Positions 1,533 to 25,966 of a DNA stretch of 34,554 nt are shown here, one piece after another. The translations under genes were made by a program, and so were the position numbers. The stretch's first letter is position 1. Every line of letters starts with the position of its first letter. Source of the DNA: Phycisphaerae bacterium (GTDB taxonomy: Bacteria > Planctomycetota > Phycisphaerae > JAAYCJ01); contig JAAZAW010000235.1 of the NCBI GenBank assembly GCA_012514125.1, positions 1 to 34,554 on the forward strand, in the 5' to 3' direction. A model generated the notes under the pieces. That model was not told the origin of the DNA and searched no databases. It was given only the letters and a program-made list of their open reading frames with translations.

Positions 1533-1880
1533 ATGAGAGGAAGACACATGGCTGAAGAACGACATGCTGAAGAACGTTATATCACAACGATCTTTTTCCC
1601 CGAAACCGAGTGGCAGGGCGATCTGATCGTCCAGGAACTTGAAGACGCCGGCATCGAAGCCTATCTGGCCAATCGGTCCAGTGTCGCCGCATGGAGCGAT
1701 GTCATGCCTCTGGTCAAACTGGAAGTGGTTGTCCCCGAAAAAGATGCGGAAAAAGCCCGTCAAATCATCGACGATTTCTTCAAAGCAAAAGGTCTTATCC
1801 CCGAATCCGAGCTGGAGGTGGAAGCCGAGCAGGCCGCCGAGGTGACGCAAGACGAACCCGCCTCAAACGAAAATAAATGA
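1533..1880 (+). CDS. DUF2007-type putative signal-transducing protein
   Basis: 115 aa ORF; TTIFFPETEWQGDLIVQELEDAGIEAYLANRSS...VKLEVVVPEKDAEKARQIIDDF matches the DUF2007 pattern. Start could be ATG 1548. Confidence 0.7.
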   Translation: MRGRHMAEERHAEERYITTIFFPETEWQGDLIVQELEDAGIEAYLANRSSVAAWSDVMPLVKLEVVVPEKDAEKARQIIDDFFKAKGLIPESELEVEAEQAAEVTQDEPASNENK

Positions 1881-2582
1881 AAACCATAAAATCCAATTCA
1901 GATTTACGGCTTCATTTTTAATCAGCATAGCGCCAAAAAACTCGCCAGCGACAGCAACGCAAAGCGATATTTACGCCTGAAAAAATGAGCAATCTCCAAT
2001 TGTAAGGTTGTTCGTTTGAACATCTGCATTTTCTCCAGCCTCTCACAGGCTTAGTGCAGCGACCCCTTCTTCCGAATCGCCGAAAATGAAAATGCAACGA
2101 ACATGCCATTCTATTAAAAAAAGCACCATCCATATCTCCCTGCAAATAAACACTTTATCAACAGGTCGTCCAAGGCGGTTTTTCGGGACGTTTCAAAAAT
2201 GAAACACAGGTTCGAGAGTGAAACCGAAAAGCAAATCGAAAAAATCAGTATCAATATTATAGTATTGCTTATTTTCATACGAACTTCATTGGTCCCATAA
2301 CGTATAATAGATAGGAGTGAAAAACACATAATAATACATCCCGCAGAACCGCACATCATCATCAACATCTTCCAGGGCACAAAAGGCCCGGGCAAGAATA
2401 CAAAAAAATATGGAATAATTCGCAACAAAGAATTGTTTTAAATAATAGAAGCAGCTTGAAAAACGCGAATGTAAAAAATTAATAATCAGGCCTGCATCCG
2501 TGGAGGGCAAAAATCGTCGTCCGGAAGTAGGAGGGCGAAAACTGCGGGAGAAAGAGCGTTTTATAGGGAAGGGGCCAAAAAA

Positions 2583-3575
2583 ATGATAGCAGAAGCAAAA
2601 AAGAAATATGTCGGGATCAAAACAATTGATGGCAGCCGGTTGCTCACAGGGGCCAAACGCGTTCTCGATCGGCTTGATTTTGACGATCGTGCGATCATCG
2701 AAAAAATCCTTTCCGAACCGGTGGAATTCGTAGACAATCCGGCGTTCCATACCGCTGCGGGCAAAGCCAATCTTGAAAAAAGTTTTGAGGCCATCGATCC
2801 GGAAATCTCAAAATCCGAAGCTCGCCTGTTGCCCATCGATATTTTCGAGCAGGGCGAAAAGGTCCTGGGAAATTTCAAACCGCTTAAAAACGAACAGGAA
2901 GTCACCCTGTTTCTCAAATTGAATTACGCCCGTTATCGAATCTATAAATTGATTAAGGAGAGGGAAAATAAACCCCTCACCATGACCATGGTCCCCCAGG
3001 TGCTCCGATGGCGAAAAGAAGAGCTTCTCGCGAGAAGCCAAATCACCCAGGCCAACATTCCGCTGGTCCTGGCCATGGCCAAACGAAGCAAGCTCGTCGG
3101 TGTCGATTTTACCGAACTCATCAGCGAAGGCAACATGGCCTTGCTCCGAAGTATCGATAAATTCGATGCCTCGCGCGGTTTCAAATTCAGCACCTACGCC
3201 TGCCGGGCGATCATAAAAAGTTTCGCCCGCGTTGCCTTGCGAACCAATCGGTATCGCGGACGGTTCCCGGTCGAATTCGACCCCGATCTTGAAAAAGGCG
3301 ATTTCATCGAGCAACGCCGAGAGGACACCAAGATATATTGCATGGATCGTCTGCGCGACATCCTCGGCAACGAAACTTCGGAACTTTCCGACGTCGAACG
3401 CAGAGTTCTCCAAGCCAGATTTGCGATTCACAAAGACACCGAACAGGAAAAGCCCATGACGCTCGAGCAGGTCGGACACGTCATCGGCGTAACCAAAGAG
3501 CGGGTCAGGCAAATCCAAAACAAAGCCCTGAAAAAACTCCGCTCCACCCTGGAGGACTCCATCCTCACAGGCTGA
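2583..3575 (+). CDS. RNA polymerase sigma factor, sigma-70 family
   Basis: 330 aa; region 2 (ITQANIPLVLAMAKRSKLVGVDFTELISEGNMALLRSIDKFDASRGFKFSTYACRAIIKSF) and region 4 (LSDVERRVLQARF...MTLEQVGHVIGVTKERVRQIQNKALKKLR). Confidence 0.92.
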   Translation: MIAEAKKKYVGIKTIDGSRLLTGAKRVLDRLDFDDRAIIEKILSEPVEFVDNPAFHTAAGKANLEKSFEAIDPEISKSEARLLPIDIFEQGEKVLGNFKPLKNEQEVTLFLKLNYARYRIYKLIKERENKPLTMTMVPQVLRWRKEELLARSQITQANIPLVLAMAKRSKLVGVDFTELISEGNMALLRSIDKFDASRGFKFSTYACRAIIKSFARVALRTNRYRGRFPVEFDPDLEKGDFIEQRREDTKIYCMDRLRDILGNETSELSDVERRVLQARFAIHKDTEQEKPMTLEQVGHVIGVTKERVRQIQNKALKKLRSTLEDSILTG

Positions 3576-3598
3576 CATCCATTCGTCAAACTCATTAT

Positions 3599-3636
3599 AA
3601 AAAAACGGCTCCTTATTCCAGAGGGGCCGTTTTTTT
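3599..3636 (+). terminator. Rho-independent terminator after the sigma factor gene
   Basis: AAAAACGGCTCC-TTATTCCA-GAGGGGCCGTTTTTTT: GC-rich stem followed by T-run, 24 bp after the stop codon. Confidence 0.85.
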
Positions 3637-3715
3637 ACAACTCCCCAACTCCCTCGACTTCTTCGCCGCCCCCGACTCTTCCAACTTCTCCCCATCTCTG
3701 GTATAACATACACCC

Positions 3716-4912
3716 ATGAACAAAGAAATCTTTACCTGTGAAATTCTGGACTTTCTAACCAGCTCTGCCGGAGCCGAAGTCCTCACGCTGGCTCGCGACC
3801 TGGATATCTACAATCCCGGCGATGCGATGAAACTTCGCAAACACTGCACCCCCGAACAAGCCCGCGCCGTTCTCGAACTCACCGAGCTTCGAAAACGGGC
3901 ACGCGACAAATTCACCCTCGCCGATTCCATGTTCTTCGACCGTGTCGGATACGAACAATCCAGCAGCCAAATCCTCGCAGAATACAAAGCCCGGCGAATC
4001 GCTTCAAATTACACCGGCGAACGAATCCTCGACCTCTGCTGCGGCATAGGCGGCGATACCATCGCGCTCGCCGGCGTCGGTCCCGTGTTGGCGGTCGACT
4101 TTTCTCCCGTTCGCATCAAAATGACTCAGATGAACCTCAAACTTCACAGCCTCGCCGATCGCTGTGAATTCCAATGCAGCGATCTGAACCAACTTGATTT
4201 ACAAGGTGAGCTGTTTCACATCGACCCCGACCGTCGAGTCCTCAAACAGGCCCGAACCGTCAGCATCGATGAAATCTCTCCCTCGAAGGAATACATCGAC
4301 CGTCTCATCTCAAAAATCCCTCACGGTGCTATCAAACTCTCGCCCGCCACCGATTTTTCAAATCTCCCCTGGCCCGGCGAACTCGAACTCATCAGCCACA
4401 AAGGTCAATGCCGTCAACTCATCGTCTGGACAGGCCGATACGCCCACGCCAAACTCCGAGCCACCACTCTCCCAAGCGGCGAAACCATCGACGACACCAT
4501 GCCCCAACGTCTGGAAATCAGCGAAATCGGAAAATACCTCTACGACCCGGACCCCGCAATCACCAGACTGCGACTCCTGCCCCAACTCGCAGGACTCATG
4601 GAACTCGACTTCATCGCCCCAGGCCAAATTGTCTTAACCTCAAACCAACTCATCGCCAACCCCCTCGCCCGCGCGTATCGCGTCGAAGAAGTCCTGCCGT
4701 ACCACGAAACCAAAATCAAAAAACTATTCCGAAGTCGTCCCACCGGTCCCGTCACCGTAAAACCACGCGGCGCCGACGTCAAAGTCGATCAATTAAGCAA
4801 ACAGCTCTCCGGAAAATCCGCCCCCGAAAAACACCTCTTCCTCTTACGGCTGGACAAAAAAATCCAAGCCGTAATCACCACCCTGGAAGCAACAGAATCC
4901 CCAACAAAATAA
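3716..4912 (+). CDS. Class I SAM-dependent methyltransferase with C-terminal THUMP-like domain
   Basis: 398 aa; SAM motif ILDLCCGIGGDTIALA, DPDRR motif, C-terminal RVEEVLPYHETKIKKLFRSRPTGPVTVKPRGADVKVDQLSKQL typical of the THUMP-like methyltransferase family. Confidence 0.8.
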   Translation: MNKEIFTCEILDFLTSSAGAEVLTLARDLDIYNPGDAMKLRKHCTPEQARAVLELTELRKRARDKFTLADSMFFDRVGYEQSSSQILAEYKARRIASNYTGERILDLCCGIGGDTIALAGVGPVLAVDFSPVRIKMTQMNLKLHSLADRCEFQCSDLNQLDLQGELFHIDPDRRVLKQARTVSIDEISPSKEYIDRLISKIPHGAIKLSPATDFSNLPWPGELELISHKGQCRQLIVWTGRYAHAKLRATTLPSGETIDDTMPQRLEISEIGKYLYDPDPAITRLRLLPQLAGLMELDFIAPGQIVLTSNQLIANPLARAYRVEEVLPYHETKIKKLFRSRPTGPVTVKPRGADVKVDQLSKQLSGKSAPEKHLFLLRLDKKIQAVITTLEATESPTK

Positions 4913-4990
4913 ACACCTTTTAATTTTGCCCTTTGCCATAATTCTCCTTCCCCGTAGCCCGCAGCCCGTCGCCCGTAACCCGCAACCGCC

Positions 4991-6799
4991 TCACTCTTTC
5001 TGTGGCCGTTCTTGCTTCAACCATCGCCCGATCGTCTGATCCAGCAACTCCGGAGGCTGGCTCTTCGACCACGCTTCCACAAAATCAACGTTATTACTCG
5101 CAGGCCGACGTTCAGGCGGCGTGATCAACGTCCGTAACGGCATCGGAACACTATCCCCCAGCACAAACGCCTCCCCAGGACTCAAAATCGGCAGCATCTG
5201 AATCAAATTCGCAAACTGATCCGAAACCACCTTCGTAATATAATGCTGATCTTCCGGATTATTCATCCTCAGCACGATCATATTGTTACACTGACTCAAC
5301 ACCGTTCGAGATAGCTCGCTGGGCCGCTGCGAAACAACAATCGCGCTCACACCATATTTTCTACCTTCCTTCGCCACTCGCTCCACCGACACCCGCGCAA
5401 AACTATTCTTAATTTCATTATCCGGGATATACGTATGCGCCTCTTCAAACACCATCACGATAGGTCTTCGAAAATTCACCGGCGTATAAAAATTGTAATC
5501 GAAAATCAGCCTCGTAATCAGTCCGATCGTCAGATCGATAATATCAAAAGGAATACCGCTTAAGTCCACAATAGTCAGATTCTTTCTAGGCTCCAGATCG
5601 CCCGTGAGCATCTTGATCAACCAGACGATCATCTCCGACCAGTCCGTCCGCTCTTCCATAATCTGCGGGAAAAGCCCGCTGAAAAGTTTCGACTTTTTCG
5701 CATGCTCGACCGGATGAAGCAAAAAATCATACCGCTTGTCGTTATATTTATGTTCGATCTGATCGATCAAACCGGTCAGTTTCTGAAAATACAGCGCATG
5801 CGGAATTTCACCCTGCGGATTGCCCTGATTAAACTGCGACTTTTGCGTCAGCAGAATTTCTTCCTGCTCTGGCAGCGACAAATTCCGCAATGCCGTCCGT
5901 GAAAACGCATATCGATCGGTATTGATAACAAACCTCGCCTGGTTCATGTTCTGCGCATACGTCAAAAAATGGTCCAGCGAAAAATAAATCGGCGTATCGA
6001 CATTATACGTCGTCAGCAACTCAAGATTTTTCGCCGAATTCTTCTTGAGCTTGATCAATGCTTCCTTAAAAAACGACACCTGGTTGGCGATGATCGTCGG
6101 GTCCGATCGATCGATAAACAGCGAATCAAGCTCCTGATATCTCAAAAGCCAATAGGGCACCACCAGGTCGTTTTCATCCAGATACGTCACGTTCGAATCC
6201 ATTTGGCCGTTTTCGTTGCTGAACGCCTTGCGATATTCCCCATGAAGGTCGAACATGATCATCTGCGTATTGGGATGTTTGATCGATTCCCCGATAATCT
6301 TCGCCACCGTACAACTCTTGCCCGCGCCGCTATTGCCCAGAACCGCGGCATGTCTCGAAAAAAACTGTCTGCCGTTAAGAAAAACCTTATAATCGGTATT
6401 AAGAGCGAATCGTCCCAGCATAAACGAAGACGACGTCAGGAGCGTTTCTCCCGCGTCGGGCCGATCGAAAATCGCATCCAGGTCCTGAGCTTCCCCTGCC
6501 ATCACCGCGTCGCCGATCATCGGATACTGGTGTACCCCGCGATAAAAACGTCCCTGGGATATTTGTCCGATCAGGTGCAGATTCATCGTCCCTGCCTGCG
6601 ATTCGGTAACTTCCAGCCCCGTCACCAGCCCGATCACTCGCGCCTCGCCCACCGGCACAACCAGAAAGCTGGCGATTTGTCCAAGCCGATCTTTTCTACC
6701 GCTCTCCAGATAATCCGCCATCAAAGCGACCCGAACCTGATCACCCTGAACACTGATAATCTGCCCAATCTGCCGTTCAGTCTTCGTTTCCTGTATCAT
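4991..6799 (-). CDS. HerA-like ATP-binding protein (HAS-barrel N-terminus, DUF87-type hexameric ATPase)
   Basis: 602 aa; Walker A GNSGAGKSCTVAKI, Walker B RPIVMVFEEAHTYIP, sensor-like IVVSQRPSELSRTVLSQCNN; N-terminal HAS-barrel-like beta region. Confidence 0.87.
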   Translation of the reverse strand: MIQETKTERQIGQIISVQGDQVRVALMADYLESGRKDRLGQIASFLVVPVGEARVIGLVTGLEVTESQAGTMNLHLIGQISQGRFYRGVHQYPMIGDAVMAGEAQDLDAIFDRPDAGETLLTSSSFMLGRFALNTDYKVFLNGRQFFSRHAAVLGNSGAGKSCTVAKIIGESIKHPNTQMIMFDLHGEYRKAFSNENGQMDSNVTYLDENDLVVPYWLLRYQELDSLFIDRSDPTIIANQVSFFKEALIKLKKNSAKNLELLTTYNVDTPIYFSLDHFLTYAQNMNQARFVINTDRYAFSRTALRNLSLPEQEEILLTQKSQFNQGNPQGEIPHALYFQKLTGLIDQIEHKYNDKRYDFLLHPVEHAKKSKLFSGLFPQIMEERTDWSEMIVWLIKMLTGDLEPRKNLTIVDLSGIPFDIIDLTIGLITRLIFDYNFYTPVNFRRPIVMVFEEAHTYIPDNEIKNSFARVSVERVAKEGRKYGVSAIVVSQRPSELSRTVLSQCNNMIVLRMNNPEDQHYITKVVSDQFANLIQMLPILSPGEAFVLGDSVPMPLRTLITPPERRPASNNVDFVEAWSKSQPPELLDQTIGRWLKQERPQKE

Positions 6800-6895
6800 C
6801 CTGAAACCTTTCCTTCATCTATACCGCTTCCATCAATCCACCCACATCTCCCTCGCCTCGCGCTTATCACGCCGCTGTCATTCCCGAGAAGGCCC

Positions 6896-6933
6896 GAATC
6901 CAGAAACGGCTCAAGCCGTTGAACAATCCTCTT
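6896..6933 (-). repeat. 38-bp repeat, inverted copy of 10989-11026
   Basis: GAATCCAGAAACGGCTCAAGCCGTTGAACAATCCTCTT is the exact reverse complement of 10989-11026; contains the 16-bp palindrome AACGGCTCAAGCCGTT with an adjacent degenerate ATTCCC...-type element at 6880-6895. Confidence 0.9.
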
Positions 6934-7111
6934 CTCCCGACCTTCCTCTTTTATCGACGAAAAACACCACCCAATTAAGCTCTTTCATCGCCCGATAAAA
7001 ACATTCCTCTATCACTTTGGAACCGATGAAAAACCGCTTTTTTTACCCCATTTCCGAAAACATCTTTTTCACCGTTTAATGAAATTTTTTTAAGGAAAAC
7101 CGCAATTGGCC

Positions 7112-7140
7112 TTGCAAGGCTCCCTATAAAGAGATATAGT
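7112..7140 (+). promoter_or_regulatory. Sigma70-like promoter of pyrF: TTGCAA-17 bp-TATAGT
   Basis: -35 TTGCAA 7112-7117, -10 TATAGT 7135-7140, spacer exactly 17 bp; -35 embedded in the perfect palindrome GCCTTGCAAGGC (7109-7120). Confidence 0.6.
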
Positions 7141-7145
7141 TTCAG

Positions 7146-7171
7146 CGTAAGATATACGTCTATACCTTACG
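7146..7171 (+). promoter_or_regulatory. 26-bp near-perfect palindrome overlapping the predicted pyrF transcription start
   Basis: CGTAAG-A-TATA-CGTC-TATA-C-CTTACG; symmetric except one A/C pair and the central four bases. Confidence 0.55.
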
Positions 7172-7218
7172 TTAAAGTTGGTAATGAAACTTAATCTCGT
7201 AATTAAGAGGGTACATAA

Positions 7219-8157
7219 GTGTCCAGTAATTTCGCTGACAGATTATTGGAGGGGATAAAGGCAAAAGGGTCGCCCATCGCTGTTGGACTTGATCCGCAAT
7301 ATTCCCGTTTGCCGCTGGTGATTCGTGAAAATAAAGAACTCAACGATGAATTGGATACCGAATCCGCCGTTGATGCTATTTTCGACTTCTCGACCAAGAT
7401 CATGCGCATCATTGCGCCTCACGTCGCAGCCGTCAAATTGAACATCGCCTTTTTCGAAAAATATTATTGGGAAGGCATCGAAGCCTACTATAGCCTCGTC
7501 GAAGAAGCAAACGATCTGGGACTCGAAATCATCGGCGACGTCAAACGAGCCGATATCCCCGATACAAACGAAGTCTATTCCCGGTCGCATCTGGCGAACC
7601 CCGAATTCACCAACATGGAAGACCTCCTCGCCCCCGATGCCGTCACTGTCAACCCATACTTCGGCATCGAAGCTCTCAGGCCGTTCTTCAACATCGCCGC
7701 CGAACAGGGCAAGGGAATCTTCGTCGTCTGCCGATCAAGCAACCCCGAAGCACACGAAATCCAGGATTTCGTCAACGCCGACGGTAAAAAACTCTATGAG
7801 CATGTCGCGGAACTCATCTCGAAAGTCGGCGCAGAACCTGCCATGATGGGAAACCATGGCTATAGCTGCCTGGGCGCCGTCGTCGGTGCCACCGACCCCG
7901 ACGCCGCAAAACAACTTCGCGAAATCATGCCTCATACCCTCTTCCTCGTACCAGGATACGGTACCCAGGGTGGAACCGCCGATGCCGCCAGGGCCTGCTT
8001 CAAGGACGATGGCACCGGCGCGATTGTTACCGCCACTAGAAGCATCATCTATGCGTATGAGTCCGATCAATATAAAGGCAGCCCCTCGTGGGAAAAAGCA
8101 GTCGAACAGGCTGTGATCGATATGAAAGAACAAATCAAGGCAGTACTAGGCGGATAA
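7219..8157 (+). CDS. pyrF: Orotidine 5'-phosphate decarboxylase (type 2)
   Basis: 312 aa, GTG start; SPIAVGLDPQYSRLP, VKLNIAFFEKYYWEG, DVKRADIPDTNEVYS, DAVTVNPYFG, FLVPGYGTQGG. Confidence 0.93.
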   Translation: MSSNFADRLLEGIKAKGSPIAVGLDPQYSRLPLVIRENKELNDELDTESAVDAIFDFSTKIMRIIAPHVAAVKLNIAFFEKYYWEGIEAYYSLVEEANDLGLEIIGDVKRADIPDTNEVYSRSHLANPEFTNMEDLLAPDAVTVNPYFGIEALRPFFNIAAEQGKGIFVVCRSSNPEAHEIQDFVNADGKKLYEHVAELISKVGAEPAMMGNHGYSCLGAVVGATDPDAAKQLREIMPHTLFLVPGYGTQGGTADAARACFKDDGTGAIVTATRSIIYAYESDQYKGSPSWEKAVEQAVIDMKEQIKAVLGG

Positions 8158-8211
8158 CCTGTCTCGCTCCGGTCATGTGCATCAATTATACTGAAATAGG
8201 CCTTTTTTAGC

Positions 8212-8231
8212 GGTTTGATTCAAGTCAAACC
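8212..8231. promoter_or_regulatory. Inverted repeat GGTTTGATTCAAGTCAAACC upstream of murD (FNR/CRP-box-like)
   Basis: 7-bp perfect arms GGTTTGA/TCAAACC; core TTTGATTCAAGTCAAA differs at one position from the generic FNR-type pattern TTTGATNNNNATCAAA. Confidence 0.35.
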
Positions 8232-8335
8232 ACTACGATGCGCCGAAGTATATATATCAGAGTTTAAAATAAAAGATCGGCGTCGGTTTTCCCGGCTCCG
8301 ACCGGAATTTGAGTTTTGATGATTGGAGCGGATAC

Positions 8336-9781
8336 ATGACGCCTTTGCCGCCTGATTATTTCGCAGGAAAAAAAATCACCATAATGGGACTGGGCCACTT
8401 CGGCGGCCAGATCGCAGCCATCCGATATCTCCTTCACCAAGGCGCCATCATCACCGTAACCGATATCGCTACAGAAGATAAACTTAAAGATTCTTTAGAA
8501 TTATTAAAGGGACTGGACGTCACCTATCACCTCGGAGGCCACCTGGAATCGGACTTCGTCGACGCCGATATGATCGTCGTAAGCCCCGCGGTACCCAAAG
8601 ATTCCCGATATCTCAAACTCGCCGCGCAAAAAGGTGTGTCCCTGACCTGTGAAATGAACCTGTTTCTCGACCGGTGCCGAGGAAAAGTTGTCGCGGTAAC
8701 CGGCACTGTCGGAAAATCAACCACACTTGGAATGATCGAATCGATCCTCCAAGCTGCCGAGCAAACGGATTTTCCGGCATTGGGGTTGCGTAAGTCCTGG
8801 TGTGGCGGGAATATAGGCAAATCGCTTCTCGAAGTCATCGCCGACATCCAACCCAACGATATTGTCGCCCTGGAACTTTCAAGTTTTCAGCTTGACGACC
8901 TCGCCGAAATCGAATATTCGCCCGACGTCGCACTTTTGACCAATATTTACCCCAATCATCTCGATCGCCATGGAACGCTCGACAATTACATCGACGCCAA
9001 AGCCAATATCACCCGCTTTCAACAGCCGGGCGATTATCTGATTTCCCGTATCGGCGATGAAAATCTGGAAAAAATCTGCGACTTGTGCCCCCCACAGGTC
9101 ACGCAGTGGTATTTCGGCGAAGGCGACGATGCGAACCTGAAAGTTCGCCTGGTCAAACACGGTGAAGGTCACGCCTCCCTGGAATATCGTCCGCGGGAGG
9201 GCGCCGAGTGGGAAAAATTGATCGATGCCTCGGAAATTTACGTTCCCGGCGAACATAATTTATTCAATGCCGCCGGTGCCGCCGGCACCTGCCTGGCTAT
9301 CGGTATTAGCGCCGCCACCGTGGCAAGGGGACTTCAAAATTTCAAAGGACTGCCCGATCGCTTGCAGTTGGTCGGACAGTACGGGCAGGTTCGGTGGTAT
9401 AACGATTCGAAATCGACGACGCCCGAATCCGGGATGGTGGCGTTAAAGTCGTTTGAACCCGGCACAATGATTGCAATTGCAGGGGGTTACGACAAAGGAA
9501 GCGATTTGACCGCCTTTGGTCGCCAACTCGCCGCCTGTTGCCGTATCACCTATTGTCTGGGCCAGACCGGCCCGAATCTCGCAGCGACGATCCACGCGGC
9601 AGGCGGGGCGGTGGAAAATGTCGAGTCGCTGGAAGAAGCCGTCCGCCAAGCCGCTGAAATTGTCCAACCGGGGCAGGTGGTCTTGCTCTCGCCCGGATGC
9701 GCAAGCTGGGATATGTTCGAAAATTATCAACACCGCGGACGAATTTTCACCCAGGCCGTCGAAAAATATGCCCGGAAATGA
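8336..9781 (+). CDS. murD: UDP-N-acetylmuramoyl-L-alanine--D-glutamate ligase
   Basis: ORF from TTG 8309 or more likely ATG 8336; VVAVTGTVGKSTTLGMIESIL, ELSSFQLDDLAEIEYSPDVALLTNIYPNHLDRHGT, YNDSKSTTPESGMVAL, LLSPGCASWDMFENYQHRG. Confidence 0.95.
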   Translation: MTPLPPDYFAGKKITIMGLGHFGGQIAAIRYLLHQGAIITVTDIATEDKLKDSLELLKGLDVTYHLGGHLESDFVDADMIVVSPAVPKDSRYLKLAAQKGVSLTCEMNLFLDRCRGKVVAVTGTVGKSTTLGMIESILQAAEQTDFPALGLRKSWCGGNIGKSLLEVIADIQPNDIVALELSSFQLDDLAEIEYSPDVALLTNIYPNHLDRHGTLDNYIDAKANITRFQQPGDYLISRIGDENLEKICDLCPPQVTQWYFGEGDDANLKVRLVKHGEGHASLEYRPREGAEWEKLIDASEIYVPGEHNLFNAAGAAGTCLAIGISAATVARGLQNFKGLPDRLQLVGQYGQVRWYNDSKSTTPESGMVALKSFEPGTMIAIAGGYDKGSDLTAFGRQLAACCRITYCLGQTGPNLAATIHAAGGAVENVESLEEAVRQAAEIVQPGQVVLLSPGCASWDMFENYQHRGRIFTQAVEKYARK

Positions 9782-9787
9782 ATTGTC

Positions 9788-9847
9788 ATATTATATTACA
9801 ATTAAAGGCGGTTCGGTTTAAGCGATCGCACAATTGTAATATAATAT
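9788..9847. repeat. AT-rich 16-bp perfect inverted repeat (28-nt spacer)
   Basis: ATATTATATTACAATT (9788-9803) is the exact reverse complement of AATTGTAATATAATAT (9832-9847); the spacer contains the palindrome GCGATCGC. Confidence 0.85.
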
Positions 9848-9862
9848 TATAATATTATAATT
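9841..9862 (+). repeat. AT-only tandem repeat, unit ATAATATT (~2.75 copies)
   Basis: ATAATATT ATAATATT ATAATT read directly. Confidence 0.8.
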
Positions 9863-9901
9863 AGGCTGTGGATGATGGAGTTCATCCATAGCCTTTTTTT
9901 T
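9863..9901 (+). terminator. Rho-independent terminator after murD
   Basis: AGGCTGTGGATGA-TGGAGT-TCATCCATAGCCT followed by TTTTTTT; 13-bp stem with one G-T wobble. Confidence 0.85.
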
Positions 9902-9912
9902 CAGGAAAATCG

Positions 9913-10947
9913 ATGTCTGTTACGGTTGAGATTCTGAATAACCCCGATCGCGCCTGTGACGCGTTTGTTGCGCGGACCCCCGGCGCGGGGATGGGGTATT
10001 TGTATTCCTGGGGGCAGGCAGTGACGCGCGCGGTGGGTTTGAAAAGTTTTTATCTTGTTGCGGTAGATGAAGATAGGGAAGTTTGCGGCGTCTTGCCGTT
10101 GTCGCAAACGCGCAGCAGGTTTTTCGGGAATCGGCTGATTTCGCAGGCGTTTTCCATGTATGGCGGTATTCTGGCGGATAGCGTCGAGGTTCGGGATTCG
10201 CTTTTCCGCCGCGCGGTCGAACTGGCCTGCGACCTTTGCTGCGAGTCCATCGAGTTTCGAGGTGTCTCTCCTTTGCCTTATGATTTGCATTTGCGGACAG
10301 GCAAGGTCTGTATGCACTTGCCGCTGGCGGGCGATCCGGGGGAGATGTGGGATTCGTTCGATTGTAAAGTCCGAAATCAGGTTCGCAAGGCGGAAAAATC
10401 CGATTTGACGGCATGTAAGGGTGGGGTGGAATTGCTCGATGATTTTTACAGGATATATGCCATTCGAATGCATCAGTTGGGCACTCCGTGTTATTCACGT
10501 CGTTTGATGCGAACGCTGCTGGAAACTTTTCCTGACGGCTGTGGTATTTTTGCCGTTGGGCGGGATGGGCATATTATCGGGGCGGGGTTTGTTACGTGGT
10601 GGAATGGGTTTGTGGAGATTCCCTGGGCGGCGTCGCTTGTGGAATACAACAGATTTTGTCCTAATCACCTTTTGTATTGGTCGGTGATCAGGCATTTTTG
10701 TCTGGGGGGGGCGAAATGTTTTGATTTTGGACGCTGCACGATCGATGGGCCGACGTATCGTTTTAAAAAGCAGTGGGGGGCGACACCTGTGGGGCTTAAC
10801 TATCAATATTGGGTTCGTCCGGGTTGTGAATTTTCGCCGGTTGTTCCGGATAATCCCAGGTATCGGCGGAAAGTTGAGCTGTGGAAAAGATTGCCTTTGT
10901 GGGTGACTCGACTGGCGGGGCCTGTTGTTAGTAAGTATTTGGGGTAG
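9913..10947 (+). CDS. FemAB-like / GNAT-fold acyltransferase, resembling the XrtA/PEP-CTERM-associated FemAB family
   Basis: 344 aa; GYLYSWGQAVTRAVGLKSFYLVAVDEDREVCGVLPL, FDCKVRNQVRKAEKSDL, CIFA..HIIGAGFVTWWNGFVEIPWAASLVEYNRFCPNHLLYW, FDFGRCTIDGPTYRFKKQWGATP. Confidence 0.78.
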   Translation: MSVTVEILNNPDRACDAFVARTPGAGMGYLYSWGQAVTRAVGLKSFYLVAVDEDREVCGVLPLSQTRSRFFGNRLISQAFSMYGGILADSVEVRDSLFRRAVELACDLCCESIEFRGVSPLPYDLHLRTGKVCMHLPLAGDPGEMWDSFDCKVRNQVRKAEKSDLTACKGGVELLDDFYRIYAIRMHQLGTPCYSRRLMRTLLETFPDGCGIFAVGRDGHIIGAGFVTWWNGFVEIPWAASLVEYNRFCPNHLLYWSVIRHFCLGGAKCFDFGRCTIDGPTYRFKKQWGATPVGLNYQYWVRPGCEFSPVVPDNPRYRRKVELWKRLPLWVTRLAGPVVSKYLG

Positions 10948-10988
10948 ACGGGGAAAGGGCTACCGGCTGCGGGCTGCGGGGAAGAGGG

Positions 10989-11045
10989 AAGAGGATTGTT
11001 CAACGGCTTGAGCCGTTTCTGGATTCCCGCTTTCGCGGGGATGAC
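10989..11045 (+). repeat. Composite REP-like repeat: AAGAGGATTGT - palindrome AACGGCTTGAGCCGTT - GGATTCCCGCTTTCGCGGGGATGA
   Basis: First 38 bp inverted-identical to 6896-6933; right half shared with 25999-26021, 11081-11103 and 28917-28942. Confidence 0.85.
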
Positions 11046-11080
11046 CGCGGGGATGCCTTTCACGCGGCGGTTTTCAACTT

Positions 11081-11103
11081 GGATTTCCGTTTTTGCGGGA
11101 ATG
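11081..11103 (+). repeat. Degenerate copy of the GGATTCCCGCTTTCGCGGGAATG element
   Basis: GGATTTCCGTTTTTGCGGGAATG. Confidence 0.7.
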
Positions 11104-11194
11104 GCTGGCTTGGGGGCTGAGATTTTGGTGGATATATTTTAATTTATGAGGTAATTTACTTTATTTTCAGTTTTTAATTTTTATTTGGATATGG

Positions 11195-12658
11195 GTGATG
11201 AGCTTAATATTGACGTTGGATGCCGGGACTACTTCTGTGAAAGGGGCCCTGTTCGACCTTGGCGGCGAGATTTTGTGCTCGCGAGTTTATGAATACGATT
11301 TGGAAAAACCGGCACCGGATATTATCGAACTTGATCCGGAAGTTTATTGGAATGCGGCTACCGGTGTTATTGCGGATATTCTGTCGGAGACGGGTGTTTC
11401 TCCGAAGGATATCACGGCGCTCGGGGTGACCAGTCAGGGTGAAACATTGATCGTTCTTGATCAATACGGCAAGCCACTTCGGAAAGCGATTGTCTGGCTG
11501 GATAACCGGGCGAAAGATGAAGCGGAGGTGATACGAAAGGCATTGGGGCGAGAACAGGTTTATCAGGTGACGGGGCAGCAGGATATTGTTCCCGGTTGGC
11601 CTGCGTCGAAAATTCTCTGGTTGAGGGAGCATGAACCGGAGGTGTTCGGTGCCGCTGCGAAGTTTTTGATGGTGGAAGATTATCTTATTTTTCGTTTGAC
11701 GGGGAAATTTGCCACGGATCATGCGATGAATCCGTCAACGCTTTATTATGATTTGCGTAACGGCTGTTGGTGGGAGGAAATGTTGGATTTTATTGGAATT
11801 TCTTCCCGACAATTGCCGACGTTACTGAATTCCGGCGATGTTGTTGGAAATGTGGCGGTGGATATTGGGTTGAGTTCTCAGACGCGGGTTACTGTGGCGC
11901 CGATCGATCAGATTGCGGCGGCAGTGGGCGCGGGGAATATATCGCCGGGGATGGTGACGGAAACGACGGGTTGTGCTTTGGCGGTGTGCGCGACGGTGGA
12001 GCGTCCTGTTTATGATCCGGGGATGAGCATCGGACTTTATCGGCATGCGCTGCCGGGGATGTTTGTTCTGCTGCCCTGGATCCCGACGGCGGGGATGGTA
12101 TTGCGATGGTTTCGGGATGAATTCGGCGGGGGTGTGGATTATTCGGCGCTGGTTGAGGCGGCGGGTGAAATTCCGCCTGGGAGTGAAGGGTTGATTTTAT
12201 TGCCGCATTTTTGCGGGATGAATTCGCCTCAGATTAATCCGGAAGCGAAAGGTGTTTTTTACGGGATTACCGCTTCGCATCGCAAGGAGCATTTTGTGCG
12301 TGCGATTCTTGAGTCGGTGGCTTTGGCGATGCGTGACAATCTGGAGGTGTTATCGAGATCGGCGATTGATTGTCGCGAGGTTGTTTCGCTTGGCGGAGCC
12401 GCTCGGAGCGAAGTTTGGCTTCAGATCAAGGCGGATGTGCTTCAAAAGCCGATTAAGACGATGCGTTGCGAAGAGACGACGAGTTTAGGGACGGCTGTGC
12501 TGGCTGCGGTGGGGACGGGGGCGTTTGCGAGTGTGAGGGAGGCGGTAGAGTCGATGGTGCATTCGTCGAGTACGGTGGTTCCGCAGGCGAGCAATGGAGA
12601 AGTTTATGATAGAGTTTTTCGTCATTATCGGGATTTGAATACGAAGCTGTTTTTATGA
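11195..12658 (+). CDS. FGGY-family carbohydrate kinase (xylulokinase-like)
   Basis: 487 aa; LTLDAGTTSVKGALFD, GVTSQGETLIVLDQYGKPLRKAIVWLDNRA, VSLGGAARSEVWLQIKADVLQKPI, TSLGTAVLAAVGTG. Start may be ATG 11198. Confidence 0.9.
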   Translation: MMSLILTLDAGTTSVKGALFDLGGEILCSRVYEYDLEKPAPDIIELDPEVYWNAATGVIADILSETGVSPKDITALGVTSQGETLIVLDQYGKPLRKAIVWLDNRAKDEAEVIRKALGREQVYQVTGQQDIVPGWPASKILWLREHEPEVFGAAAKFLMVEDYLIFRLTGKFATDHAMNPSTLYYDLRNGCWWEEMLDFIGISSRQLPTLLNSGDVVGNVAVDIGLSSQTRVTVAPIDQIAAAVGAGNISPGMVTETTGCALAVCATVERPVYDPGMSIGLYRHALPGMFVLLPWIPTAGMVLRWFRDEFGGGVDYSALVEAAGEIPPGSEGLILLPHFCGMNSPQINPEAKGVFYGITASHRKEHFVRAILESVALAMRDNLEVLSRSAIDCREVVSLGGAARSEVWLQIKADVLQKPIKTMRCEETTSLGTAVLAAVGTGAFASVREAVESMVHSSSTVVPQASNGEVYDRVFRHYRDLNTKLFL

Positions 12659-12707
12659 TTTTGATGGAGGCGTGTTGTTGAGGCGTGGGGAGGGAAGAAG
12701 GGGGAAG

Positions 12708-12747
12708 GTGTGAAGGTGTGAAGGTGCGAAGGTGTGAAGGTGCGAAG
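12708..12747 (+). repeat. 8-bp tandem repeat, unit GTGYGAAG, 5 copies
   Basis: GTGTGAAG GTGTGAAG GTGCGAAG GTGTGAAG GTGCGAAG. Confidence 0.9.
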
Positions 12748-12760
12748 GTTTGGAGAAAGT

Positions 12761-12783
12761 CGCTTCGACAGGCTCAGCGACCG
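12761..12783 (+). repeat. Dispersed REP-like repeat, copy 2
   Basis: Identical to 1-23; here the stem extends to GTCGCT...AGCGAC. Confidence 0.75.
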
Positions 12784-12893
12784 CAGTTGGGCTTTAGGTT
12801 TTGGCAGAGAATGCGAGTTTTTTTGTACTGTGACGTTATTAACGCAGAAGCGTGTGTGTGAAAGTTATTTGGCAGGAAAGTGGAGGTGACATT

Positions 12894-14258
12894 ATGAACG
12901 GCATCAGAAAAGTCAGGGCAGGATTTGTTGGATTCGGGGAAGTTAATACGCCCAGGGAATTTATTACGAAGCGCTGTGACGCTGCCGCCAAGTTACTGGA
13001 GGAGGCGGGGTTGGAATTGAGCGTTGCTTCGCCGGTTTGTGACGATGCGCAAGGTCGAGAGGCGGCTCGCGCGGTGGTGGAACTTTCCGGGAAAGATTTT
13101 GATGTGTTAATTATCTGCATTGCCGGATGGATTCCATCGTGGGCGGTGCTGAGCGTTATTGAACCGTTTAAGAATAAGCCGATGATTTTATGGGGACTTA
13201 GCGGATGGCAGGAGGGAGATCGATTTGTGACCACTGCCGACCAGGCGGGAACGACCGCTTTACGAAAACCGATGGCGGATATGGGGTATATCTTCAAATA
13301 TGTTGTGACGTATCGTGGGCAACAGCCGCCGATTAATGACATTTTGACTTATGCCCAGGCTGCGCGTGCGGTATCGTTGCTCAGGACCGCGAAGATCGGC
13401 ATGGCGGGTTATCGCGACATGCGGCTGTTTGGAACTTTGTACGATGGAGTTTCTCTGAAGGGGAAAATCGGTCCTGAGATCGAGCATTTTGAGTTGCTGG
13501 AAATTGTGAACATGATGGAAAAGGTCGATGAAAAAGAAGTGGAGAAACTTGCCGCTTTGCTGAAGAATCGATGGAAATTTGTTCGGGATCCTCGGCCTGG
13601 GACGGTTGAAAATTCCGTGCGATTGTTCCTTGCCTTCAAAGCCAAAATTGAAGATCGCGGGTATCAGGGATTTTCGTATAATGACGTGGACGGCGTTAAA
13701 AAACTATTGAAATTTGCTCCTGCCGGCAGTTTGACGTTACTGCATGACGAACTGGATGTTTGTTCTGTGCCGGAGAACGACAGTTTGGGGGCTGTGACTC
13801 AGCTTATTGTCAAATATCTTACCGGTCAGGTGGGGGCCTATCTTGAATTTTATGAATTTTTATCAGAAGGCGCGTTGATGGGGGTGCCGGATTATGTACC
13901 TGCGGAAATTGTTGACGGGAGTGTGACCGTGATGCCTAACGCCTTTGGCGATTTTGGCGAAGGGTTGCTGAACGTTTCGAAATTGAAAACCGGAAGGGTT
14001 ACGTTGTGTCGCCTGGGGTATTTTGGGAATGAATATACCCTGCATGTTGTGACGGGCATTGGCCGAACTCCATTGAAATGGGAAGAAGCCGGCTGGGCGC
14101 CGCCTGCGCCGCAACTGCCGAGTTTGGAGATTGTGTTCGATACTCCGGTTGAGGATTATGTTCAGAATGTCATGTCTCAGCATTACATTATTTCTTATGG
14201 TGATAATCGCGAACATTTAAAAGCGCTCTGTTCGATGGTTGGAATTCGATATTTGTGA
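12894..14258 (+). CDS. L-fucose/L-arabinose isomerase-like sugar isomerase
   Basis: ATG 12894 preceded by GGAGGT; VRAGFVGFGEVNTPREFITKR, FDVLIICIAGWIPSWAVLSVIEPFKNKPMILWGLSGW, GMAGYRDMRLFGTLYDGVSLKGKIGPEIEHFEL. Confidence 0.75.
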   Translation: MNGIRKVRAGFVGFGEVNTPREFITKRCDAAAKLLEEAGLELSVASPVCDDAQGREAARAVVELSGKDFDVLIICIAGWIPSWAVLSVIEPFKNKPMILWGLSGWQEGDRFVTTADQAGTTALRKPMADMGYIFKYVVTYRGQQPPINDILTYAQAARAVSLLRTAKIGMAGYRDMRLFGTLYDGVSLKGKIGPEIEHFELLEIVNMMEKVDEKEVEKLAALLKNRWKFVRDPRPGTVENSVRLFLAFKAKIEDRGYQGFSYNDVDGVKKLLKFAPAGSLTLLHDELDVCSVPENDSLGAVTQLIVKYLTGQVGAYLEFYEFLSEGALMGVPDYVPAEIVDGSVTVMPNAFGDFGEGLLNVSKLKTGRVTLCRLGYFGNEYTLHVVTGIGRTPLKWEEAGWAPPAPQLPSLEIVFDTPVEDYVQNVMSQHYIISYGDNREHLKALCSMVGIRYL

Positions 14259-14269
14259 TCGGGAAGGTT

Positions 14270-15313
14270 TCAGATGATCAGCATGGCGTCGCCGTAGCTG
14301 TAGAATCGATATCGTTTTGCAATGGCGTGGTGGTAGGCGTGTTGCGTGAGCTCTTTTCCCGCCAGGGCGTAAATCATCGCGAGCAGCGTGGTTCTGGGCA
14401 GATGAAAATTGGTCACCAGACGATCAACGACCTTGAAGCGATAGGGTGGATAGATGAAGATTTGCGTCCAGCCCCGGCCTGGGGTGACGATTCCGTCTTC
14501 GTTTGCCAGGGTTTCGAGCACTCGGACACTGGTTGTGCCGATCGCGACGATTTTTTTGCCTGTTGATTTCGCGTTGTTGATGGTTTCGGCGGTTGCCTGA
14601 TCGAGATGATACCACTCGCTGTGCATTGGATGATCTCGAAGGTCTGCTACGGTTACAGGCTCGAACGTTCCCATGCCGACGTGGAGGGTTACGCTGACGG
14701 TTTTTACTCCTTTGTCGGTTATTTTTTTCAGAAGCTCGGGAGTAAAATGAAGTCCTGCCGTTGGTGCGGCCACTGCACCGGGTGTGTCGCTGAAGATGGT
14801 CTGATATCGTTTTGCGTCCACCTGTTCCAAAGCGTCATTTGTTTTCGGGCGGCGAATGTAAGGCGGCAGGGGGATGCGGCCGAAACGCTGCAAAAATTCC
14901 ACTGGATCGACCGCGGGTGATACGTGCATTTCGACGGTTTTTTCGCTGATTCGTTTTTGGAAAATAAACTTGGTGTCGCTGTTTTCTATTTGTAATTCAA
15001 CGCCCGGTTTGAGTCTGGCCAGGCCTTTGATCATCATTTCCCATCGTCCGGGTTCCATTTCTCGCAAAAATAATCCTTCGACCTTGCCGCCGGTGGATTT
15101 GTGGAAAAAGATTCGGGCGGGCAGCACCTGCGTATTGTTCGTTACCAGCACATCGCCGGGCGAGAGGTATTCGGGCAGATCGTAAAAATGCCGATCGAAC
15201 AATTCGTCCGTGTTGCGATTGATGACGAGCAGTTTGGAGTGATCTCTGGGCTCGATTGCCTGCTGGGCGATCAGTTCTTCCGGTAATACGTAATCGAGTT
15301 CTTCAGTCCGCAT
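14270..15313 (-). CDS. queA: S-adenosylmethionine:tRNA ribosyltransferase-isomerase (queuosine biosynthesis)
   Basis: 347 aa; LDYVLPEELIAQQAIEPRDHSKLLVINR, VLVTNNTQVLPARIF, GAVAAPTAGLHFTPELL, TLHVGMGTFEPV, GTTSVRVLETLA, NFHLPRTTLLAMIYALAG. Confidence 0.96.
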   Translation of the reverse strand: MRTEELDYVLPEELIAQQAIEPRDHSKLLVINRNTDELFDRHFYDLPEYLSPGDVLVTNNTQVLPARIFFHKSTGGKVEGLFLREMEPGRWEMMIKGLARLKPGVELQIENSDTKFIFQKRISEKTVEMHVSPAVDPVEFLQRFGRIPLPPYIRRPKTNDALEQVDAKRYQTIFSDTPGAVAAPTAGLHFTPELLKKITDKGVKTVSVTLHVGMGTFEPVTVADLRDHPMHSEWYHLDQATAETINNAKSTGKKIVAIGTTSVRVLETLANEDGIVTPGRGWTQIFIYPPYRFKVVDRLVTNFHLPRTTLLAMIYALAGKELTQHAYHHAIAKRYRFYSYGDAMLII

Positions 15314-15325
15314 GATTTTCGGTTT

Positions 15326-16144
15326 CTAATCGATCAATGTTATCACTTTCATCCACAACAATATTGCGAACACTGCGGCGAAGACAAGGCGATAATATGC
15401 GAAGGGTTTGAGTGTCCACTTTCCGAGCAATTTGATAAAGGTTTTGATCGCGATGACGGCCACGATGAAGGAGACGACAAATCCTACGGCGAATACGGGG
15501 ATATCGTTTGCGGACAGGGCGTTTCGCGATTCGTACAGGTCTTTGGCGGTCGCAGCGAACATGATCGGCACCGCGGCCAGGAAGGAATATTCCGCGGCGA
15601 TAGTTCGGTCGAGTTTGCTGAACATTCCGCCGACGATGGTCGATGCCGCTCTGCTCATTCCCGGCCAGAGGCTGATGCACTGGAAGAGTCCGACGGAAAG
15701 GGCGTGTCGCCAGTTAAGGTCATCGAGCGATTTGACTTTTGGGGTGGGTCTGAATTTTTCTGCGAGTAAAATGCCGATTGCGCCCAGGGCTAGTGCGATG
15801 ACTACAGGAATGGGGTGAAAGAGATATTCCTTCATGGGTTTGTAGACCAGCACACCGGCAATCGCGGCGGGCAGGGAGGTCAGGAACAACAGCCACCATC
15901 CTCGCAGGCCATAAAATCCTTTGGTTTGCCGGAAATTGAACAATCCTTTGAATCGGCTCCAGTACAGGAACACCACCGAAAGGATGGCTCCGAGTTGGAT
16001 TACCACTTCGAAACATTTGGCTGTTTGGCCCGTGAATTTCAACAAATTTCCGACGATAATCAGATGTCCTGTGGAGGAAACCGGTACAAATTCTGTTAAT
16101 CCTTCCACAACGCCTAAAATCGCGGCGATTATAATTTCCCGCAT
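15326..16144 (-). CDS. uppP: Undecaprenyl-diphosphatase
   Basis: 272 aa; AAILGVVEGLTEFVPVSSTGHLIIVGNLL, LWPGMSRAASTIVGGMFSKLDRTIAAEYSFLAAVPIMFAAT; multi-TM. Confidence 0.95.
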   Translation of the reverse strand: MREIIIAAILGVVEGLTEFVPVSSTGHLIIVGNLLKFTGQTAKCFEVVIQLGAILSVVFLYWSRFKGLFNFRQTKGFYGLRGWWLLFLTSLPAAIAGVLVYKPMKEYLFHPIPVVIALALGAIGILLAEKFRPTPKVKSLDDLNWRHALSVGLFQCISLWPGMSRAASTIVGGMFSKLDRTIAAEYSFLAAVPIMFAATAKDLYESRNALSANDIPVFAVGFVVSFIVAVIAIKTFIKLLGKWTLKPFAYYRLVFAAVFAILLWMKVITLID

Positions 16145-16445
16145 CGAAATACGCTCCCTTTCAACAAGGCTATGAAAATAACAGTCTCCAACATAATGAT
16201 AAAGTCGTTGTCTTTCAATTCATTTCGACGGGGACCGCTCAAGTTTTTCGATTTTTCGCGGTGTAATTGCGTGAAGGGGGAGGGCCTGGTGCGATTGAGC
16301 CTGCGTGGGGATCGATTGTACAAAGGGCAGGATTGATTGAATATTCTGTCAGCCTGCTTGAAACCTGTCGGCGGAGTGATACGATACATGCGAAGAATAG
16401 TGTGTCTTGGTTCACTGGTTCCGCTTGTTAGACAGGAGAAAAACA

Positions 16446-17735
16446 ATGGCGAGTTTAAAAGGTAATTGTGTACTGGCTCAGTCGGGTGGTCCGACCGCGG
16501 TGATTAATGCCAGCATTTGCGGCGCGGTTCAGGAAGCGATGCGGTATCCGGAAATATTCACGGGTATTTACGGCGCCGATAACGGTATCCTGGGGATTTT
16601 GAACGAAAAACTTTTCGATCTCGGACAAGAACCTGCCGACAATATCGAAGGGTTGAAGTCCACTCCGGCCGCTGCTCTTGGCTCGTGCCGATATAAACTC
16701 AAGGATCTGACACAATCTCGGGACGATTATGAGCGAATCATCGAAGTCTTCAAAGCTCATAATATTCGTTATTTCTTCTATGCAGGCGGAAACGATTCGA
16801 TGGACACCTGCGATAAGATTTGCAAACTCGCCAGAGAAACAGGCTATGATATGATCGCCGTCGGTATTGCCAAGACCATCGACAACGATCTGGCGTTTAC
16901 CGATCATTGCCCCGGTTTCGGCTCGGTCGTCAAATATAACGCCACCGCCATTATGGAAGCAGGCAAAGATACCGAAGCGATGTACACCGCTGATACCATT
17001 ACCGTTCAGGAAATTATGGGACGAAATGCCGGCTGGATCGCCGCGGGGACGGGAATGGCTCGACGAAGTTATGAAGATGCTCCGCATTTGATTTATATTC
17101 CGGAGATTCCCTTTGTGGTCGAAAATTTCGTTCAGGATGTCAAAGAAGTCCTCAAACGGATCGGCTATTGCGTGATTTCCGCCGGTGAAGGGATGAAAAA
17201 CGCCGAGGGTAAATATATTTCCGAAATGGGCGGCTCGTTCGGTAAGGACTCCTTTGGTCATGCCCAGCTTGGCGGTGTGGCGGATATTCTGCGTGGCATT
17301 ATTGAAAGCGAAATCAAAGTCAAATGCCGGACACAAAAATTGGGAACCTGTCAGCGATCAGCTATGCACTTTGCTTCTCTTACCGACGTTAATGAAGCCT
17401 ATATGTGCGGTCAGGCTGCTGTCAAAGCTGCGGCTGAGGGAATTTCAGGCAAAATGGTCACACTGGTCCGCGAGGGCGACGGTGCGAACTATCGATGCAC
17501 GACCGGTCTGGCAGACCTTAGTGCCGTAGCCAACGGTGAAAAATATCTGCCTCGAGAATTTATGGACGAACGTGGAACCTCCATCACCGACGCGATGCGA
17601 AAATATATGACCCCGCTGCTCCAGGGAGAGGCTCCTGTCCGTATCGGAGACGACGGATTGCCGGTTTACGTTCGTTTGCAGAAACACCGGCTTGCTCCGA
17701 AAACGGGGCGTGAATATTCCGCCGGTAAAAAATAA
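16446..17735 (+). CDS. Phosphofructokinase family, likely PPi-dependent (diphosphate--fructose-6-phosphate 1-phosphotransferase)
   Basis: Longest ORF from 16407, ATG 16446 preferred (preceded by AGGAG); LAQSGGPTAVINASICG, YAGGNDSMDTCDKI, VGIAKTIDNDLAFTDHCPGFGS, EIMGRNAGWIAAGTGMARR. GGNDS rather than GGDG suggests PPi use. Confidence 0.85.
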   Translation: MASLKGNCVLAQSGGPTAVINASICGAVQEAMRYPEIFTGIYGADNGILGILNEKLFDLGQEPADNIEGLKSTPAAALGSCRYKLKDLTQSRDDYERIIEVFKAHNIRYFFYAGGNDSMDTCDKICKLARETGYDMIAVGIAKTIDNDLAFTDHCPGFGSVVKYNATAIMEAGKDTEAMYTADTITVQEIMGRNAGWIAAGTGMARRSYEDAPHLIYIPEIPFVVENFVQDVKEVLKRIGYCVISAGEGMKNAEGKYISEMGGSFGKDSFGHAQLGGVADILRGIIESEIKVKCRTQKLGTCQRSAMHFASLTDVNEAYMCGQAAVKAAAEGISGKMVTLVREGDGANYRCTTGLADLSAVANGEKYLPREFMDERGTSITDAMRKYMTPLLQGEAPVRIGDDGLPVYVRLQKHRLAPKTGREYSAGKK

Positions 17736-17898
17736 TGAGCGGCTTTCATAATTTACAAAAGAGACGCGACCGGAAGGGCGTGTGGGAGTGTTTGCGAATT
17801 CCGTGAAAACCACTGGCGTTACTTTGACAATTTCGGTACACTCTTGAAATAGAAAAAGGAGGTATGATAGTTTTTTATAAAATCGTGAGGAGATTTGG

Positions 17899-25963: not shown

Positions 25964-25966
25964 GCG

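What the first reader, a model, noticed from the sequence alone, without database searches (positions are those of the whole stretch)
8880..10000. GC-skew polarity switch near 9.3-9.9 kb, independent of coding strand
Left of ~9.3 kb the + strand is C-rich over both + genes (3841-3900: C=25, G=13) and the minus-strand HerA gene (5401-5460: C=16, G=7). To the right it is mostly G-rich over both + genes (9601-9660: G=23, C=14) and minus genes (zwf 25201-25260: G=21, C=12). A C-rich to G-rich change is the polarity expected at a replication origin, or at an inversion breakpoint. Evidence against an origin: no dnaA/dnaN/gyrB nearby, most left genes are on the + strand (not co-oriented with the expected fork), and parts of the pfp gene are locally C>G (16861-16920: G=14, C=18). 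Counts are hand samples, not a full profile.
Basis: partly seen in the sequence, partly recalled or inferred. Interest (0 to 1): 0.6.

Follow-up and report, generated by a model that had tools for sequence, protein, structure and literature searches.

The report
Many origin-like sites on bacterial chromosome
It sits on a short paired-palindrome element, one of about 19 such elements in this genome, and nearly all of those that can be tested mark the same origin-type switch, which suggests that this planctomycete-like bacterium copies its chromosome from many defined starting points rather than one.

Summary
Confirmed: at window ~9.8 kb the third-position GC skew jumps from -0.46 to +0.42 (6-kb flanks) and the AT skew flips the other way, on genes of both strands. 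The jump falls in the 131-bp murD/FemAB gap. It is neither THE origin nor a plain inversion scar. Sampling ~0.7 Mb of the same 2.98-Mb draft genome shows a mosaic of strong, strand-independent skew domains with many sharp C-to-G jumps. The window's gap holds two AT-rich palindromes (9781-9803 and 9832-9862; motif A). Another jump (contig C131) shares the same 22-mer. A second motif (B, ATTACACAAACGTGTAAC, in pairs 30-31 bp apart) lies at other jumps. Genome-wide searches with A and B (reversed-pattern controls: 0 hits) found about 19 loci. At 14 not used for discovery the mean skew step is +0.32 against -0.01 for random positions (13/14 positive; 0 of 200,000 resamplings as large). B sites occur inside purD, ksgA and other genes, so they are not promoters. 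Uniform polarity argues against inversion. Best reading (0.6): multiple sequence-specified, bidirectional replication origins with an unknown initiator. Firing was not shown. Main rivals: another outward strand-biased process, or many small replicons. Read-depth peaks would decide.

The parts
9781..9803 (.). Motif A, first palindrome: AATTGTCATATTATATTACAATT
   Evidence: Coordinates; same 22-mer at the C-to-G jump of contig C131; 10 genome hits at <=2 mismatches against 0 for the reversed control
9804..9831 (.). Spacer of 28 bp between the palindromes, not conserved between loci; contains the palindrome GCGATCGC at 9822-9829
   Evidence: Spacer sequences compared across A loci; coordinates
9832..9862 (.). 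Motif A, second palindrome: AATTGTAATATAATATTATAATATTATAATT
   Evidence: (inverted repeat I3)
9864..9901 (+). Hairpin followed by T8, probable intrinsic terminator of murD (inferred from sequence, not tested)
   Evidence: Sequence
1..9780 (.). C-rich (+ strand) skew domain left of the site, carrying SpoIIE-type phosphatase, sigma-70, methyltransferase, HerA (-), pyrF, murD
9913..34554 (.). G-rich (+ strand) skew domain right of the site, dipping towards zero at about 16-21 kb
8309..9781 (+). murD-like Mur ligase, last gene of the C-rich side (GC3 skew -0.27)
9913..10947 (+). FemAB/GNAT-like protein, first gene of the G-rich side (GC3 skew +0.41); not beside murD in any of the class relatives listed with both genes
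6872..6934 (-). Copy of a dispersed repeat, oriented with the left (C-rich) domain
10988..11050 (+). Copy of the same repeat in the opposite orientation, right of the switch

Best explanation
The switch marks a bidirectional, origin-like site, one of many on this chromosome. A pair of palindromes (motif A at 9781-9862; elsewhere motif B, 16-bp near-palindromes in pairs 30-31 bp apart) is bound by an unidentified protein that starts replication forks, or stimulates fork start, in both directions. Each outgoing fork exposes its lagging-strand template, so the strand running 5' to 3' away from the site becomes rich in G and T over roughly 10 kb or more, until forks from other sites cancel the bias. 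Shown: the skew, its strand independence, the shared motifs, and their position at C-to-G steps. Inferred: that the cause is replication, that the motifs bind an initiator, and that the sites fire in living cells.
For: Sharp GC3 and AT3 flip at the intergenic site, independent of gene strand. The mosaic is genome-wide: opposite-strand neighbours correlate 0.72 in + strand GC3 skew, and the mean coding-strand skew is -0.02. Motif A is shared by the window and C131, motif B by C339 and C94. Genome searches: A 10 hits and B 25 hits at <=2 mismatches, reversed controls 0 and 0. A search for core pairs 30 bp apart hits, at <=2 mismatches, only 10 loci, all already known B loci. At 14 loci not used for discovery the skew step averages +0.322 against background -0.009 (sd 0.128); 13 of 14 positive, 0 of 200,000 resamplings as high. 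All high-scoring B sites in sampled contigs lie on C-to-G steps. Outward GC3 skew is ~+0.3 to +0.5 within 6 kb on both sides. Spacing is 30 or 31 bp at 12 of 13 B loci. The dispersed repeat follows the local skew in 28 of 30 copies. Outward G/T richness is the sign expected of forks leaving the site.
Against: No direct evidence of initiation. DnaA boxes are rare at the sites (8 in 12.9 kb). Highly expressed genes are not consistently co-oriented with outgoing forks: the S10 ribosomal-protein operon lies on the G-rich strand, but the str operon lies on the C-rich strand, and the 16S gene sits on the minus strand where + is G-rich. Skew decays within about 10 kb although A/B sites average one per ~155 kb; several sharp steps (C287, C258, C299, C34, C168) carry neither motif and no shared third motif was found. 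Motif B is confined to this genome among 198 class genomes. A complete class relative has similar domains, but no motif was found at its steps.
Confidence: 0.6

Rival explanations
1. A strand-biased process other than replication initiation radiates outward from these protein-bound sites, for example pervasive divergent transcription or repair starting at a site-specific nick or break.
For: Bias decays within ~10 kb of the sites, shorter than replichores between sites ~150 kb apart would suggest; motif B pairs look like regulator operators, and one lies upstream of a ribonucleotide reductase gene.
Against: Transcription does not drive skew here: mean coding-strand GC3 skew is -0.02, and sites lie between co-directional genes or inside purD, ksgA and other genes. 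End resection at breaks followed by cytosine deamination would give the opposite sign (inference).
Confidence: 0.17
2. The genome is divided into many small replicons, each with its own iteron-type origin, so each site is the single origin of a minichromosome or plasmid.
For: Iteron-like pairs plus AT-rich DNA resemble plasmid origins; the genome is in 398 contigs.
Against: Sites lie amid or inside chromosomal genes (murD, pyrE, purD, ksgA, fliQ/R, topA). A complete single-contig relative (4.25 Mb) shows similar skew domains.
Confidence: 0.12
3. An ordinary two-replichore chromosome scrambled by inversions; the window switch is one breakpoint.
For: Mosaic skew of both signs; murD and FemAB are not neighbours in relatives, and HerA-pyrF-murD is conserved only on the left side; inverted repeat copies flank the switch. 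Step-direction asymmetry is weak in unbiased samples.
Against: Inversion predicts both polarities at its breakpoint elements; 17 of the 18 A/B loci with enough flank on both sides are C-to-G, the exception being a lone weak match. It does not explain why unrelated sites share 30-bp-spaced palindromes.
Confidence: 0.07
4. The site is the unique chromosomal origin (canonical oriC).
For: Correct polarity, intergenic, AT-rich, two DnaA-box-like 9-mers nearby.
Against: Same steps at many other loci; dnaA-dnaN-gyrB elsewhere; no DnaA-box cluster.
Confidence: 0.02

Closest known systems
Multi-origin, DnaA-independent replication in cyanobacteria (Synechocystis 6803, Nostoc 7120, dnaA-less species; PMC7198777)
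   Same: Bacteria with irregular skew profiles reported to replicate from multiple origins
   Different: In the passages read, the mechanism is called unknown and no common origin sequence is named; here sharp steps coincide with specific paired palindromes, and dnaA (two paralogues) is present
Archaeal multi-origin chromosomes (Sulfolobus, Haloferax)
   Same: Several discrete origins per chromosome, AT-rich DNA with repeated binding sites, several skew reversals
   Different: The known cases are two to a few origins; here ~19 or more candidate sites, in a bacterium, with an unknown initiator
Iteron-type plasmid and secondary-chromosome origins
   Same: Short repeated binding sites beside AT-rich DNA
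   Different: Here near-palindromes in 30-bp pairs, dispersed in chromosomal genes, no Rep gene beside the window's site; Rep families were not searched genome-wide
Skew-based proposals of multiple bacterial origins (Xia 2012 PMC3269012; Gao 2015 PMC4403523)
   Same: Multiple skew polarity changes taken as possible multiple origins
   Different: Those rest on skew (plus DnaA boxes); both papers name rearrangement or transfer as confounders. Here an independent sequence element predicts the steps
Eukaryotic skew N-domains
   Same: Sharp upward skew jumps with more gradual decline between them
   Different: Scale of tens to ~135 kb in a bacterium; the asymmetry between up and down steps is only weakly supported here

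Membership tests
Canonical DnaA-dependent oriC | Origin-type GC-skew switch | tested here: met
Canonical DnaA-dependent oriC | Only one such site per chromosome | tested here: not met
   Many C-to-G steps and ~19 motif loci in the same genome
Canonical DnaA-dependent oriC | Cluster of DnaA boxes | tested here: not met
   Two one-mismatch 9-mers near the window site; 8 in all near 19 loci
Canonical DnaA-dependent oriC | Adjacency to dnaA/dnaN/gyrB | tested here: not met
   dnaA-dnaN-gyrB on contig C331, second dnaA on C239
Multi-origin chromosome (archaeal or cyanobacterial kind) | Several origin-type skew switches in one genome | tested here: met
Multi-origin chromosome (archaeal or cyanobacterial kind) | Common sequence element at the switches | tested here: met
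   Motifs A and B; some switches have neither
Multi-origin chromosome (archaeal or cyanobacterial kind) | Several switches on the same DNA molecule | tested here: inconclusive
   Own genome is a draft; several skew domains on one 4.25-Mb contig of a class relative
Multi-origin chromosome (archaeal or cyanobacterial kind) | Demonstrated initiation (read depth, nascent strands, ARS activity) | not testable with these tools
   No reads or culture available
Iteron-type origin | Repeated binding sites beside AT-rich DNA | tested here: met
   B pairs and A palindrome pairs; 200 bp around the sites is 51-71% AT
Iteron-type origin | Cognate Rep initiator encoded nearby | tested here: not met
   Genes in the window and those identified beside other sites are housekeeping genes, none Rep-like
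Inversion breakpoint | Both step polarities equally likely at the shared element | tested here: not met
Transcription-factor operator | Placed at promoters | tested here: not met
   B pairs inside purD, ksgA, a glycosyltransferase and other genes; some sites are upstream of genes
Mobile palindromic element (MITE or REP) | Conserved element body between termini | tested here: not met
   Spacers between paired palindromes differ at every locus

The most novel reading that the evidence does not exclude
A bacterial chromosome copied from tens of discrete, sequence-specified origins, each marked by paired palindromes recognised by an undescribed initiator, with eukaryote-like competing forks that leave ~10-30 kb skew domains.
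Probability: 0.45. Interest if true: 0.93.

Novelty: new variant of a known kind. Interest (0 to 1): 0.78.

Why it matters
One origin per bacterial chromosome is close to a textbook rule; [quoted passage not shown] A genome in which a defined sequence element predicts where strand bias flips turns the question of sequence-specified multiple bacterial origins into one testable with existing metagenome reads, and would point to a new initiator protein and a different way of organising replication and segregation.

Tried and rejected
Sawtooth asymmetry (more up-steps than down-steps) was tested as an independent sign of many origins: suggestive over all own contigs plus one relative (one-sided p 0.009-0.034) but not significant in the randomly chosen contigs alone, so it is not relied on. 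A motif common to the steps of the complete relative G055 was sought by palindrome search and 9-mer enrichment without success; one candidate palindrome there belongs to insertion-sequence debris. A third motif for the unexplained own steps was sought without success, while the same method recovered motif B as a positive control. The repeat's orientation bias suggested REP/RAYT transposition, but no Y1 transposase was found. Gene co-orientation was tried as a marker of fork direction and gave mixed answers. Rfam and tRNA searches of the window: nothing. The one genome-contig scan gave few relatives.

Full report
Check of the observation. The hand counts are exact. Over the whole window the cumulative GC-skew excursion is four times the largest of 2000 shuffles. 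Third-codon-position skew separates strand effects from coding: the six genes left of 9.8 kb have + strand GC3 skew of -0.25 to -0.67 whichever strand they are on, and the first genes to the right have +0.41, +0.63, +0.36, +0.30, +0.27, again on both strands; AT3 skew flips in the opposite sense. With 6-kb flanks the step at 9835 is -0.46 to +0.42. By third positions the switch is between murD (ends 9781) and a FemAB/GNAT-like gene (starts 9913); the all-site cumulative minimum is at 9095.

Not a unique origin. The window is the whole of contig C196 of a 398-contig, 2.98-Mb draft genome, 92.7% complete, related to Planctomycetota/Phycisphaerales records. Contigs sampled from the same genome (about 0.7 Mb) show blocks of strong skew, up to about +/-0.8 at third positions, usually 5-30 kb long, with adjacent genes on opposite strands correlated at 0.72 and a mean coding-strand skew of -0.02. 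dnaA-dnaN-gyrB lie on contig C331, with weak skew. A complete single-contig class relative (G055, 4.25 Mb) has the same kind of domains; a contiguous 400 kb of it shows sharp rises near 30, 163 and 303 kb with slower declines after them. So the mosaic is unlikely to be an assembly artefact.

What lies at the steps. The intergenic sequences at sharp C-to-G steps were read side by side. The window gap has two AT-rich palindromes, AATTGTCATATTATATTACAATT (9781-9803) and AATTGTAATATAATATTATAATATTATAATT (9832-9862). The same 22-mer, with a second palindrome 51 bp on, lies at the step of contig C131. Steps on C339 and C94 share TTACACGTTTGTG. Searching the whole genome at up to two mismatches gave 10 hits for motif A and 25 for motif B, with none for the reversed patterns. 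Motif B, consensus about ATTACACAAACGTGTAACTTT, occurs in groups of two to five; at 12 of 13 loci neighbours are 30 or 31 bp apart, and a search for 30-bp-spaced core pairs recovers, at up to two mismatches, only loci already known. Spacers between the palindromes are unrelated from locus to locus.

Do the motifs predict the steps? The motifs came from four loci (C196, C131, C339, C94). At 14 other loci with enough flank, the all-site step (up to 1.4 kb each side) averages +0.322, with 13 positive and 12 above +0.2; random positions in the same genome average -0.009 (sd 0.128; 5.6% above +0.2), and none of 200,000 resamplings reached the observed mean (maximum 0.171). Leaving out the three loci on contigs whose skew I had already seen (C120, C398, C6) the mean of the remaining 11 is 0.29, by arithmetic on the same table. 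The one negative locus, C267, is a lone two-mismatch match; C129 has too little right flank to test. A position-weight scan of the sampled contigs puts every B site scoring 15 or more on a C-to-G step, and explained one further step (C308) not found by the first search. The outward-signed GC3 skew is about +0.4 to +0.5 within 6 kb on the left and +0.3 to +0.4 on the right, falling towards +0.1 by 9-12 kb; in the window it recovers beyond 12 kb.

Interpretation. Uniform polarity argues against inversion at these elements, which should give both step directions. Position between co-directional genes or inside purD, ksgA, a glycosyltransferase and other genes, and the lack of coding-strand skew, argue against promoters and transcription. 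In a fork leaving the site the lagging-strand template is exposed, and cytosine deamination there makes the outward strand rich in G and T, as seen; exposure by end resection at a break would give the opposite sign (inference from established mutational patterns). If the flips do reflect fork polarity, many flips of one kind imply many origins whether the forks start at the sites or meet there; outward G/T richness, the usual leading-strand composition, favours starting there. An independent marker agrees: a dispersed 54-66 bp repeat (41 matches) is oriented with the local skew in 28 of 30 copies, and its copies on either side of the window switch are inverted.

Limits. Nothing here shows initiation. 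Highly expressed genes do not consistently point away from the sites. DnaA boxes are not clustered. Some steps lack both motifs, and A/B loci (about one per 155 kb) are fewer than the sharp steps seen in the sample, so there are either other site types or other causes. Motif B is confined to this genome among 198 class members, and the relative's steps have no recognised motif; closely related genomes are almost absent from the held set.

Comparison with the known. A 2015 opinion paper states that there was no evidence of two functional origins used on one bacterial chromosome (PMC4403523), and a 2012 review used skew alone to suggest multi-origin bacteria while naming horizontal transfer and strand switching of genes as confounders (PMC3269012). 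Cyanobacteria such as Synechocystis 6803 are reported to replicate from multiple origins without DnaA, by an unknown mechanism (PMC7198777). The present case works like a multi-origin chromosome and adds a sequence element that predicts the steps; membership cannot be claimed without evidence of initiation.

Noticed in passing
window 6872-6934 (-), 10988-11050 (+), 25968-26021 (+); 41 matches genome-wide: Dispersed repeat AGAGGATTGTTCAACGGCTTGAGCCGTTTCTGGATTCCCGCTTTCGCGGGGATG whose orientation follows local GC skew in 28 of 30 copies; no Y1 (RAYT) transposase found in the genome.
   Followed up: partly
window 26232-26297: Another pair of similar palindromic 26-mers 31 bp apart, just past the end of the P-type ATPase gene, with no skew flip: a caution that such spacing also occurs away from skew steps.
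   Followed up: no
window ~20.8-21.4 kb: Smaller rise of the skew within the right domain (about +0.07 to +0.23 all-site, 3-kb flanks) without motif A or B.
   Followed up: no
window 16407-17735 (pfp): pfp has GC3 skew of -0.15 inside the G-rich domain; possibly a recently acquired gene.
   Followed up: no
L194 (contig C67) 397-560 and L195 (contig C129) 1489-1575: A motif B pair plus an A palindrome lie upstream of a ribonucleotide reductase gene; an A pair lies upstream of a topoisomerase I gene.
   Followed up: partly
contigs C331 and C239 (L016, L017): Two DnaA paralogues with complete ATPase and C-terminal DNA-binding domains; five few-contig class relatives also have two or three strong DnaA matches.
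   Followed up: partly
G055:C1:1.30-1.70 Mb (L170-L189): A complete class relative has sawtooth-like skew domains of about 135 kb without a recognised motif.
   Followed up: partly
window 12704-12757: 8-bp tandem repeat GAAGGTGT/GAAGGTGC in the gap before the arabinose-isomerase-like gene.
   Followed up: no
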